Assembly (NCBI RefSeq): GCF_022568795.1
Contig: NZ_JAKZHU010000001.1
Span: 2,666,001-2,730,000 of the forward strand
Source of the DNA: Arsenicicoccus dermatophilus
Lineage (GTDB): Bacteria; Actinomycetota; Actinomycetes; Actinomycetales; Dermatophilaceae
Length of the DNA stretch: 64,000 nucleotides
Reading direction: 5' to 3'
Shown here: in pieces, positions 15,135-19,090 of the stretch
Layout of the letters: the number at the start of each line of letters is the position of its first letter
How positions within the stretch are numbered: position 1 is the first letter of the stretch
The notes under the pieces: model-generated
Told to the model about the DNA's origin: nothing
Databases searched by the model: none
What the model saw: only the letters and a program-made list of their open reading frames with translations
Translations under genes and position numbers: made by a program

Positions 15135-15152
15135 ACCTACCGCCGGTAGGTC
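15134..15152. terminator. Hairpin spanning two convergent stop codons
   Basis: GACCTACC-GCC-GGTAGGTC forms an 8-bp stem with a 3-nt loop. It starts on the last base of the oxidoreductase stop and ends in the stop of the ABC permease fragment on the other strand, so one hairpin could terminate both transcripts. Confidence 0.55.
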
Positions 15153-16533
15153 AGTCGGAGCCGAGCAGCTGTCGCTCGAAGCGGTGGCCCCCTCGGAGCC
15201 ACGCCCACCCGCAGACGAGAGCCACCGCGCCCGCGGCGGGGCCGAGCGCCCACCACAGGGACCGCGCGGCGATCTGGTCAGGACCGTACATCGACAGCAC
15301 GGCCCACGACGACAGCGTGGCCACCAGCACCCCACCCACACCGCCGACCCCGATCGGCAGCAGGGCCATCGCCGTCCGGCGCCCGCGCAGGAAAGACGTC
15401 GAGGTCCCCAGCGCCACCAGGCTGTTGGTGGAGGCACGAGCAGACTCCTGGATCCGGTCCAGGACGAGCACGAAGGACAGGAAGCACAGCACCGCAGCCG
15501 CCATGACACCGAGGTTGAGGATCATGGCCTGCTCGCGGGCCAGCGCATAGGCCGACTGTCCGCCCCAGGCACGCAGCTCCGCCTCGGGCAGTGCCTGGTG
15601 AATGGCCTGGGTCCGGCGGTCGTACTCGGCGCTCCCGGTCGGGATCTCCTGGATCACGGTTCCCTGCGCCAGCTGCCAGGCCCAGCCGTTCTCCTCGAGC
15701 GGCAGCCTCACCTCCCCCTCAGGCAGCTCCAGGTCGACCGGGATCGACAGCAGCGTCAGCGAGTGCACCCGGTGGCCTGTGAGGGGGATCGACAGCGAGC
15801 GGATGCCCGCCGGCAACGGCCCCCGGCAGGGACCGCCGCCGCACGGTCGGCCGGCCCGGGGGCCACCCGCGAGCTCCACCCTGAAGAAGCTGTCCCGTGG
15901 CCCGTCCACTGCGTAGGTGACCGCCGCGTCCCCGCGCACCACGGACCGCAGGACCGCTCGCCCGTCTGCGGCGACAGACTCCAGCGGCACCTGAACGGCC
16001 ACCGTCGGTCGACCTTGCTCGGTGACCACCCGCACCCACACCAGGAAGGTGCCGCACATGGCGCAGGTCAGGACGGTCACCACCATGACCGTGACGAGAC
16101 GGGACACCGTGGGCCAGTGGTAGGAGGCAGCACGGGCCCCGTGGCGAAGGAGCAGCAGCCGGCTTCGGTGCGCCGCCTCGCAGACTCGTCGGGCCAGCCA
16201 GGTCACGGTGACCGGGGCGCTGGCCGCGAGGAGCCCGACGGCGAGGAGCGTCGTGGAGTAGAGCGGGCTCCCGGTGGGAGACACGGGGCGGGACCCTGCC
16301 GTCACGCAGATGACCGCGAGAAAGCCCACCGCCACGAGGGACGTGACGAGCGCAGCACGCGTCGCCCAGCAGCCGAGGTGCTGCTGCCAGCGGGGACGAC
16401 CCCGCCGCCGCACGGAGGAGGAGAGCACCCCGGACATGGTGACCCGTGCGAGCAGCCGGATCGCCAGCAGGACCCCTGCGGCGACGACGACGAAGACCAC
16501 GGCGACCCCGAGTCCCGGCGCGCTGTGCTCCCG
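15151..16533 (-). pseudogene. ABC exporter permease (FtsX-like), 3' fragment cut off by IS110 insertion
   Basis: About 460 codons remain open from the IS junction (reading REHSAPGLGVAVVFVVVAAG) to the stop. They hold the C-terminal part of an FtsX/MacB-type permease: membrane segments (VVFVVVAAGVLLAIRLLA; TRAALVTSLVAVGFLAVICV; LVTVMVVTVLTCAMC), an extracellular domain of about 150 residues, then three C-terminal helices. The N-terminal half is on the other side of the element (17990-19071). Joining the two flanks restores the frame as VRWWGVSL-REHSAPGLG, so the gene was open across this point before the insertion. No start codon with a ribosome site is seen for the fragment. Confidence 0.8.
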
Positions 16534-16559
16534 TTACCTTCTTCGTGCCCTCGGTGATG

Positions 16560-16770
16560 GGGGTGCTGGTCACCAGGTCTGGTATGACTCTTTGCCCCTG
16601 TCGCGCATGATCCGGGGGGTGTTGTCGCCGGGCTTGGTGGCGTCGGTGTGACCGCTGATAGGGACACGGCCCCCGCGCTCGGGAGGTCTCTTCGTAACGT
16701 GGCTGCCGGCTGCTGACGCCCGACCTGTGGCCAGCGGATCATGAGTCCGTCGGTCAACGAGGAGGACAGG
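16560..16770 (+). ncRNA. Candidate bridge RNA in the IS110 left end
   Basis: The non-coding left end upstream of an IS110 transposase encodes the structured bridge RNA in characterised members such as IS621. Here ATAGGGACAC at 16658-16667 is identical to the right junction/flank 17988-17997. CGGGAG at 16680-16685 is complementary to the left flank CTCCCG at 16528-16533, so the two would pair with opposite target strands. GGCGTC (16639-16644) can pair with GACGCC (16715-16720) and enclose both. TCTTCGT at 16689-16695 repeats the left terminus at 16540-16546. RNA ends are unknown. Confidence 0.5.
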
Positions 16771-17979
16771 ATGCACGGGCTACCCGACCGCACCTACGCG
16801 GTCTACCTGGGGTTGGACGTCGGCAAGGAAACTCACCACGCCACCGCCCTGGACCCGTCCGGAAAACGGCTGCACGACAAGGCGCTACCGCAAGACGAGA
16901 CCAAGCTGCGCGCCCTCTACGAGCACCTGTCCACGCACGGCCCGGTCCTGGTCGTGGTGGACCAGCCCGCCTCGATCGGGGCCCTGCCGGTCGCGGTCGC
17001 CCGCGCCGTCGGGGTCGACGTGGCGTACCTGCCGGGCCTGGCGATGCGCCGCATCGCGGACCTACACCCCGGCGCAGCGAAGACCGACGCCCGCGACGCG
17101 TACGTCATCGCCGACGCGGCCCGCACCATGCCCCACACCCTGCGGCGCGTGGACATGAACGACGACGCCCTGGCCGACTTGGAAGTCATCGTCGGGTACG
17201 ACGACGACCTGGCCGGTGAGGTCACCCGCGTCACCAACCGCCTGCACGGCCTGCTCACCCAGATCCACCCAGCCCTGGAACGAGCCCTCGGACCCCGACT
17301 GCACCACAAGGCTGTCCTCGAGCTCCTGACCAGGTTCGGCGGACCCGCCGGGCTACGCACGGCCGGTCGGCGGCGGCTGACGAGCGTGGCCAAGCCCCGC
17401 GCGCCGCGCTCCTACGATCGGATCGTCGACGAGGTCATGACCGCCCTGGACGCCCAGACCGTGACCGTGCCCGGCACCCGCGCGGCCGAGCTCGTCATCC
17501 CGAAGCTGGCTTCCCAGCTCGCCGACCTGCTCGAGCAACGCGCGACCGTCGCGGCGCAGGTCGAGGAGATCCTTGATGCCCACCCTCTTGCCCCGGTCCT
17601 GACCTCGATGCCCGGCGTCGGTGTCAGGACCGCCGCAAGGATCTTGCTCGAGGTCGGCGACGGCAGCGCCTTCCCCACAGCCGGGCACCTCGCCGCCTAC
17701 GCAGGCCTCGCCCCCGTCACACGTCGATCCGGGTCCAGCATCCGCGGCGAGCACCCCTCCAGGTCAGGCAACAAGAACCTCAAACGCGCGCTGTTCCTGT
17801 CCGCCTTCGCAGCCCTGTCCGACCCCACCAGCCGCGCCTACTACGACCGCAAACGAGCCCAAGGCAAGAAGCACAACGCCGCCCTCATCTGCCTGGCCCG
17901 CCGACGCTGCGACGTTCTCTACGCCATGCTCAGAGACGGCACCACCTACCAAGCCCCGACGGCCGCTACCGCGGCTTGA
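16771..17979 (+). CDS. IS110-family DEDD transposase (bridge recombinase)
   Basis: 402 aa from ATG at 16771, which has GGAGG at 8 nt; an in-frame ATG at 16741 lacks this. The N-terminal RuvC-like DEDD domain shows YLGLDVGKETHHATALD, VLVVVDQPASIGALPVAVAR and GAAKTDARDAYVIADAART. A coiled middle region follows, then the C-terminal Transposase_20 domain (SMPGVGVRTAARILLEVGDG, AAYAGLAPVTRRSGSSIRGE, GNKNLKRALFLSAFA) with its conserved Ser region. The enzyme looks intact. It is expected to insert through a circular intermediate without a target duplication of usual type. Confidence 0.93.
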   Translation: MHGLPDRTYAVYLGLDVGKETHHATALDPSGKRLHDKALPQDETKLRALYEHLSTHGPVLVVVDQPASIGALPVAVARAVGVDVAYLPGLAMRRIADLHPGAAKTDARDAYVIADAARTMPHTLRRVDMNDDALADLEVIVGYDDDLAGEVTRVTNRLHGLLTQIHPALERALGPRLHHKAVLELLTRFGGPAGLRTAGRRRLTSVAKPRAPRSYDRIVDEVMTALDAQTVTVPGTRAAELVIPKLASQLADLLEQRATVAAQVEEILDAHPLAPVLTSMPGVGVRTAARILLEVGDGSAFPTAGHLAAYAGLAPVTRRSGSSIRGEHPSRSGNKNLKRALFLSAFAALSDPTSRAYYDRKRAQGKKHNAALICLARRRCDVLYAMLRDGTTYQAPTAATAA

Positions 17980-17989
17980 CGAACCCCAT

Positions 17990-19071
17990 AGGGACACCCC
18001 CCACCAGCGCACCCCGACGAGACCCGATCCGGCCAGCGCTGCATGCGTCGCGGCATACACCCCGGCCCCCGACACGGTCCCGATCACGCCGAGCAGGGTG
18101 ATCTCGGCGGCGTAGAGCCGCCCGCACCGCCGCGCCGAGACCCCCAGGACGACGAGCGAGCGATACCGGCGTTCGCGGCTCCGCGCCGTCGCCCGCAAGC
18201 ACAGCTGGAGCAACATCACGGTCAGAGCACCGACGAGGATCCCCAGCTCGGCCGCCATCATGGTGGCCGGGGTCGCCATCAGGCCCTGACCACCGGCCCC
18301 GAAGCCTGCGACGCCTGCAGGTGAGGGCCGACCCGGCACGACGGTGTAGGACAGCAGCTCGTCCGGGTCGGTGAGTCCGGGGGCGCCGATGCGCTCCGGG
18401 ACGACCACCCCCAGCCCGAGCCGGCTCGCCAGCTCTGGATCGCGCTCCAGGCGCTCTGCCAGGCCCGGAGAGACCATCGACCGGCCCGGCTGCGGCCACT
18501 GCCTCACCCCCGGTGGCCGAGGTGCCTGCGCCGTGACTCCGCGGTAGACGAAACGCTGATAGGGCTCCCCCGCAGGAGCTCGATGCTCCCGCTGCGGACC
18601 GGCCGACACCGCGCGGCCGATCGCCGCCCGCTGCGCCTGACCGCCGGACACCGCCGCGGGGCGGCGACCCGCGCACTCCTCCAGCCCGAGCCGCTCCACC
18701 AGCTCGGCCACGCGTTGCTTCCGGGGCCGACGGCCCCACCGCAGCAGCTCCAGCGGGAGCTCGACGTTCTCGGCCAGGGTCAGCTCGGGCACCAGGTCGG
18801 CTCGCTGGAAGACGAAGCCCACCGAGCCCAACCGCAACGCCGCGAGCGCCTCCGGCGTGGCGGCCGCGGTGTCGACCCCGAGGAGGCGGACCCGCCCTCG
18901 GTCGGGCCGCTCCAGCCCCGCCATGGCATACAACAAGGTGGTCTTGCCCGAGCCCGACGGACCCACCACCGCCACGGACCCGGGAGCAGACAGCTCCACC
19001 GAGATCCCGCGCAGCACCGGAGCCTGCCCATAGTCCACCCACAGGTCCTCGACCCCGACCGCCTGATCCAT
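17990..19071 (-). pseudogene. Fused, internally deleted ABC ATPase-permease, 5' part
   Basis: ATG at 19071 follows GGGGAGAGCG. Residues 1-160 are an ABC ATPase: GPSGSGKTTLLYAMAGLE (Walker A), Q-loop in GFVFQRADLVPELT, signature VSGGQAQRAAIGRA. The sequence then passes straight from VSAGPQ into permease-type sequence (EPYQRFVYRGVTAQ) with no Walker B, D-loop or H-loop. A MacB-like periplasmic region and helices (AELGILVGALTVMLLQL, EITLLGVIGTVSGAGVYAA) follow until the IS110 right end. The ATPase C-terminus and permease N-terminus therefore look deleted, fusing two genes in frame. It cannot hydrolyse ATP normally. The 3' part is 15151-16533. Confidence 0.78.
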
Positions 19072-19090
19072 CGCTCTCCCCGCCACGCGA

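What the first reader, a model, noticed from the sequence alone, without database searches (positions are those of the whole stretch)
16534..17997. IS110 element whose non-coding end appears to carry target guides for the very site it occupies
Seen directly: ATAGGGACAC (16658-16667) inside the left non-coding end is repeated exactly at the right junction (17988-17997). CGGGAG (16680-16685), 12 nt further on, is the reverse complement of the left flank CTCCCG (16528-16533). The two stretches would pair with opposite strands of the two half-targets, as the left and right target guides of an IS110 bridge RNA do. GGCGTC/GACGCC can close a stem around them, and TCTTCGT (16689-16695) repeats the left terminus, a candidate donor guide. 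Established: IS110 members such as IS621 use such RNAs. Inference: this element has its own specificity, with a target close to GTGTCCCTA-CGGGAG on the minus strand, and no conspicuous CT core at both junctions.
Basis: partly seen in the sequence, partly recalled or inferred. Interest (0 to 1): 0.72.

Follow-up and report, generated by a model that had tools for sequence, protein, structure and literature searches.

The report
IS110 element homing to C-runs

Summary
The repeats are real, but their roles are swapped. The element (16533-17997) is an IS110-group insertion sequence with five more near-identical copies and four ~75% relatives in the same genome. ATAGGGACAC occurs exactly 20 times in the 3.5 Mb genome: twice in each of ten elements and nowhere else. 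It is therefore the element's own right end plus the bridge RNA's left donor guide, not a target half. The real target guides lie upstream: LTG TTTGCCCC (16591-16598) and RTG GGGGGGT (16614-16620). They point to a C-run of about 8, and copies sit in such tracts. In relatives the target guide covaries with the flank, and intact IS5 and IS3 genes supply empty sites, one of them identical to the joined flanks across the junction. The RNA fold has strong compensatory support. Mechanism: IS621-type bridge-RNA recombination, inferred. Distinctive features are a homopolymer target and a core that is CC on the left but AC on the right, which preserves a natural record of top-strand exchange. It is a family member with unusual specificity, not a new system.

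The parts
16533..17997 (+). whole IS110-group element (GTTACC...ATAGGGACAC), 1465 bp
   Evidence: junction comparison of ten copies; empty sites of relatives show that donor DNA runs from GTTAC to ...CAC; abutted RE-LE in L149
16771..17979 (+). transposase/recombinase CDS; start probably 16771 (ATG behind GAGGAGG), 16741 is an in-frame alternative
   Evidence: PF01548 1.8e-47 and PF02371 1.5e-23; NF033542 'IS110 family RNA-guided transposase' 246 bits, cut-off 140; IS621 in PDB
16533..16770 (+). long left non-coding end that encodes the bridge RNA
   Evidence: covarying fold across 36 homologues
16547..16566 (+). 5' stem-loop GCCCTCGGTGATGGGGGTGC
   Evidence: single-sequence fold; the same kind of hairpin can be seen in most aligned relatives; not in the RNAalifold consensus
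16572..16638 (+). target-binding loop with its closing stem (arms 16572-16588 / 16624-16638)
   Evidence: helix 1: 10 of 15 pairs with changes on both sides, 94% of cells paired
16591..16598 (+). left target guide TTTGCCCC (register uncertain by up to 2 nt because of the C-run)
   Evidence: matches left flanks; best register reached by only 3 of 5000 permutations
16614..16620 (+). right target guide GGGGGGT, pairs with core + RT (ACCCCCC after strand exchange)
   Evidence: RTG-flank permutation tests: 0 of 200000 (11 non-poly-C elements), 0 of 20000 (87 elements)
16621..16622 (+). GT, candidate handshake guide of the target loop (would pair with AC of the donor left half)
   Evidence: inference from the IS621 scheme (PMC11208158)
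   Evidence: helices 3 and 4: 9 of 12 pairs with changes on both sides
16658..16667 (+). left donor guide ATAGGGAC + core AC
   Evidence: identical to the right end; GGGA/GGGG/GAGG variants concordant between guide and end in 85 of 86 elements (permutation maximum 62); 20 genome occurrences = 2 x 10 elements
16694..16702 (+). right donor guide GTAAC + core GT + GG (candidate handshake guide, would pair with CC of the target)
   Evidence: reverse complement of (AC)GTTAC at the left end; near-invariant, so no covariation evidence
16533..16537 (+). left end of the element: right donor GTTAC
16525..16532 (.). left half of the occupied target, GTGCT CCC (last two C = target core)
17998..18002 (.). 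right half of the occupied target, CCCCC
17975..17980 (+). TTGACG in the right end; in the circle it stands 17 bp from TTACCT of the left end: probable junction promoter
   Evidence: TTGAC in 94 of 96 right ends, 16-17 bp from TTAC at the joined junction

Best explanation
An ordinary, intact-looking IS110-group insertion sequence. Its left end encodes a bridge RNA with a 5' hairpin, a target-binding loop and a donor-binding loop. The donor loop (ATAGGGAC-AC / GTAAC-GT) pairs with the junction of the element's own joined ends, ATAGGGAC-AC-GTTAC. The target loop (TTTGCCCC / GGGGGGT) pairs with a run of about eight C. The recombinase cuts the top strands behind the two-base core of both DNAs and swaps them, so the left junction keeps the target core (CC) and the right junction keeps the donor core (AC), with no target duplication. 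Shown here: the element, its boundaries, the repeat roles, guide-flank and guide-end covariation, the RNA fold, and exact empty sites in relatives. Inferred from IS621: transcription of the RNA, the circle intermediate, strand order and handshake pairing.
For: Six ~100% and four 74-75% copies in the genome. GTTACC (one copy GGTACC) and ATAGGGACAC constant at all ten, flanks unrelated beyond the C-tract. ATAGGGACAC only in elements, 2 x 10. Guide-flank covariation, 0 of 200000 permutations for the 11 non-poly-C elements (earlier 10-element test 2 of 100000). Donor guide and right end concordant in 85 of 86. L157 joined flanks identical to an intact Streptomyces parvus IS5 gene through the junction; L237 against intact IS3: CCC on the left kept, right side AAAATGATGT identical. 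RE-LE abutment ATAGGGACAC|GTTACC in L149. RNA stems: 93.6% of cells paired against 30-54% for slid versions, 122 double-change cells against at most 39. IS621 architecture from PMC11208160 and PMC11208158.
Against: The single-sequence fold is not more stable than shuffles (z -0.46). No Rfam family matches. The left target guide fits its flanks only loosely and its register wanders by up to 2 nt. The exact empty site of the window copy was not found; related species are too diverged at the sites tested. With 8 C the host reading frame would be broken, 6 or 9 would keep it, though the host gene already looks decayed. Transcription and activity are untested.
Confidence: 0.92

Rival explanations
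1. One reading: ATAGGGACAC and CGGGAG are the two target guides and the target is GTGTCCCTA-CGGGAG.
For: 10-nt identity is above chance; guide order and strands resemble a bridge-RNA loop.
Against: ATAGGGACAC is in every copy at unrelated sites and nowhere else in the genome; it stays with the element in relatives whose target differs; CGGGAG/CTCCCG is at chance and absent at other copies.
Confidence: 0.02
2. The C's on both sides are conserved element ends rather than target, and the element has little or no target preference.
For: Five of six identical copies show CCC on the left and 6-7 C on the right.
Against: C counts vary between identical copies (L006 5 + 4). In relatives the right flank changes with the guide. 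Intact IS5/IS3 genes contain both halves of the target, e.g. GCCCCC|CTTTT. C-runs of 8 or more are rare, about nine free ones in 3.5 Mb by my count.
Confidence: 0.05
3. The match is left over from recombination or degraded copies and no functional bridge RNA is made.
For: No transcript data.
Against: Compensatory changes in both loops' stems across 36 homologues, guide-target covariation, identical multicopy elements that imply recent movement, intact CDS with D26, D74, D116, D119 and S330.
Confidence: 0.03

Closest known systems
IS621 (IS110 group; Durrant et al. 2024 PMC11208160, Hiraizumi et al. 2024 PMC11208158)
   Same: DEDD-type recombinase with Tnp domain and catalytic Ser; bridge RNA in a long left end, 5' hairpin + target loop + donor loop; same guide order and strands; no target duplication; RE-LE junction promoter
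   Different: core is AC (donor) / CC (target) instead of CT on both; target is a C-run instead of a mixed REP sequence; second acidic residue is D in 161 of 161 of the clade where the IS621 papers report E60
ISEc21 and its seekRNA (IS110 type; Siddiquee et al. 2024 PMC11187229)
   Same: upstream non-coding RNA with guides for both strands; ISEc21 sits in IS3-family transposase genes, as relative L237 does here
   Different: different target; donor guides were not decoded there in the text read
ISRhosp7 / ISRhosp8 (Rhodococcus jostii RHA1 plasmids, IS110-like)
   Same: named ISs with ~71-72% identical transposase, same clade
   Different: their ends and targets were not examined here

Membership tests
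IS110 family, IS110 group | DEDD_Tnp_IS110 (RuvC-like) plus Transposase_20 domain | tested here: met
   second acidic residue is D rather than E
IS110 family, IS110 group | catalytic Ser of the Tnp domain | tested here: met
   S330 aligned with IS621 Ser in SGSSxRG
IS110 family, IS110 group | no terminal inverted repeats of IS1111 type; left end longer than right end | tested here: met
   LE about 238 bp, RE 18 bp; STIRs were judged by eye only
IS110 family, IS110 group | insertion without target duplication | tested here: met
   in relatives, exact empty sites; not for the window copy itself
Bridge-RNA (seekRNA) systems | structured RNA in the end with two internal loops | tested here: met
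Bridge-RNA (seekRNA) systems | target-loop guides covary with insertion site | tested here: met
Bridge-RNA (seekRNA) systems | donor-loop guides covary with element ends | tested here: met
   left donor guide; the right donor guide is near-invariant, so uninformative
IS621-like subset | CT core at both junctions | tested here: not met
   left core NC (C at position 2 in 116 of 117), right core AC in 86 of 92
Bridge-RNA (seekRNA) systems | RNA is transcribed, binds recombinase and is needed for recombination | not testable with these tools
   needs RNA-seq and assay

The most novel reading that the evidence does not exclude
A large, mainly actinobacterial IS110 clade is programmed for homopolymer C-tracts and uses unequal cores (donor AC, target CC). 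Its junctions then form a natural record of the strand exchange: the target core is kept on the left and the donor core on the right in the great majority of copies. This bears on the open question of what happens to the bottom strands and to core mismatches after IS110 recombination.
Probability: 0.5. Interest if true: 0.5.

Novelty: new member of a known kind. Interest (0 to 1): 0.36.

Why it matters
The finding shows that an IS110 bridge RNA can be fully read from one genome window plus relatives, and that the obvious LE-to-end match is the donor guide, a trap for guide calling from single copies. The clade's C-run target is unusual for an RNA-guided recombinase. Such tracts are scarce and may serve as low-cost landing sites (inference). 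The unequal AC/CC core gives natural sequence evidence on strand exchange and core mismatch tolerance, and suggests orthologues with a core other than CT for programmable recombination.

Tried and rejected
Rfam scan of the locus: no match. Single-sequence fold: z -0.46, uninformative. Search for an intact CCGTTACACCCCC target, an early wrong guess that GTTAC belonged to the target: only matches with mismatches, near control counts. Empty sites of L005, L006, L009, L010 in congeneric genomes: flanks partly align but the sites are too diverged for a base-exact answer. Hairpin/terminator targeting, suggested by palindromes beside L003, L005, L008, L009: MFE against control C-runs p = 0.10, not supported. 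Host reading frame as a C-counter: ambiguous, host gene decayed. Literature search for C-run-targeting IS110: nothing in the held library, which lacks most subscription papers and whose supplementary tables could not be read.

Full report
WHAT IS THERE. The window carries a 1465-bp element, 16533-17997, with one intact gene for an IS110-family transposase (Pfam PF01548 and PF02371; NCBIfam NF033542 'IS110 family RNA-guided transposase'; IS621 and ISCro4 as nearest solved structures). The same genome holds five further practically identical copies and four copies of a relative at 74-75% DNA identity.

THE OBSERVATION. The 10-nt repeat ATAGGGACAC is more than chance (3 of 2000 shuffles reach 10); CGGGAG/CTCCCG is not (about 21% of shuffles reach 6).

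Aligning the ten insertion sites shows GTTACC at every left end (GGTACC in L009) and ATAGGGACAC at every right end, with unrelated DNA beyond a C-tract. A whole-genome pattern search finds ATAGGGACAC 20 times, two per element, none elsewhere. It therefore belongs to the element: the right end (left donor) and, in the left non-coding end, the guide that recognises it. In IS621 the donor loop's 5' side matches the donor's left half and its 3' side is complementary to the right half (PMC11208160). Here ATAGGGAC+AC equals the right end and GTAAC+GT (16694-16700) is the reverse complement of AC-GTTAC. A relative with abutted ends, L149, reads ATAGGGACAC|GTTACC, the predicted donor junction.

THE REAL TARGET GUIDES. 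Upstream, a first loop carries TTTGCCCC and GGGGGGT. Together they spell a C-run of about eight. Sites of copies L001-L007, with the element taken out, have 8-11 consecutive C; L008-L010 have C-tracts with one interruption (with one C of the right end assigned to the donor). The 64-kb window has one C-run of 7 and none of 8 or more outside the element, and the whole genome about nine free runs of 8 or more, by my count of overlapping hits outside elements.

TEST BY COVARIATION. Some 170 relatives were fetched. Most have GGGGGG in the guide and C-runs at the site. Eleven deduplicated elements have other guides, and their right flanks follow: CAGAGGT with ACCTCTG (L024), CGAAAAGGT with ACCTTTTCG (L163), AAAAAGT with ACTTTTT (L159), GATTTGT with ACAAATC (L203), ATTTTGT with ACAAAAT (L237), GGGAGGT with ACCTCCC (L214, L217). 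Permutation reaches the observed fit in 0 of 200000 trials for these eleven (2 of 100000 for the ten) and 0 of 20000 for 87 elements. The left guide gives a weaker but significant signal (best register 3 of 5000, one of six registers tried). The permutations do not correct for shared ancestry. The donor guide follows the element's right end in 85 of 86 elements (permutation maximum 62).

EMPTY SITES. L157, L159, L163 and L211 sit at one point of IS5-family transposase genes. An intact gene on a Streptomyces parvus plasmid reads GGACCTGTGTGTTCGCCCCC|CTTTTAGC, identical to the joined flanks of L157 across the junction. L237 sits in an IS3-family gene; intact copies have CCC on the left and AAAATGATGT on the right, as in the joined flanks. 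This fixes the boundaries: the donor contributes GTTAC...GGGRCAC and nothing is duplicated.

RNA STRUCTURE. A single-sequence fold is uninformative in this G+C-rich DNA (z -0.46). Across 36 homologues, RNAalifold finds the two expected stem-loops. 93.6% of cells pair, against 30-54% when partners are slid; 20 of 33 pairs have changes on both sides and 122 cells change on both sides, against at most 39 slid.

CORE. The left junction has NC in front of GTTAC (C second in 116 of 117, CC mostly), the right has AC in 86 of 92. In IS621 the top strands are cut behind the core in both DNAs (PMC11208158), which leaves the target core on the left and the donor core on the right. Because donor and target cores differ here, the natural junctions display that polarity. 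That bottom strands or mismatch repair seldom reverse it is inference.

OTHER MECHANISTIC HINTS. TTGAC stands in 94 of 96 right ends, 16-17 bp from TTAC once the ends are joined, so the circle would form a promoter ahead of the RNA, as described for IS110 elements (PMC11208160). The catalytic set is D26, D74, D116, D119, S330; the second position is D in 161 of 161 clade members where the IS621 papers give E60; numbering by spacing and alignment, not by structure.

NOVELTY. The mechanism is known and this element is a member of a known kind. A C-run target and unequal AC/CC cores were not described in the papers I could read, but supplementary tables and subscription papers were out of reach, so priority is open.

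Noticed in passing
window, 25 places, e.g. 3314, 7732, 18052, 33007, 63594: GGCATAC (24 of 25 as CGGCATAC, often followed by C) occurs 25 times in 64 kb on both strands, about ten times the first-order expectation of 2.6. Its role is unknown; it also shows up in flanks of copies elsewhere in the genome.
   Followed up: partly
window 15151-16532 and 17998-19086, minus strand: The host locus is an ABC-transporter gene pair that looks already decayed: the ATPase runs out of register after its signature motif into permease sequence, and the IS then splits the permease.
   Followed up: partly
L157, L159, L163, L211 (IS5-family genes) and L237 (IS3-family gene): Some members of this IS110 clade are guided to one conserved point inside IS5- or IS3-family transposase genes, so one IS lineage preys on others; ISEc21 is a published parallel.
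   Followed up: yes
clade alignment, residue 74 of the ORF from 16741: The second acidic residue of the DEDD motif is D in 161 of 161 clade members, where IS621 has E60.
   Followed up: partly
L008, L009: The right target guide carries eight G instead of six while the sites look like the others; guide length varies within one genome.
   Followed up: no
L002, L003, L005, L008, L009 flanks: Several copies sit beside strong palindromes, possibly terminators; not significant against control C-runs (p = 0.10).
   Followed up: yes
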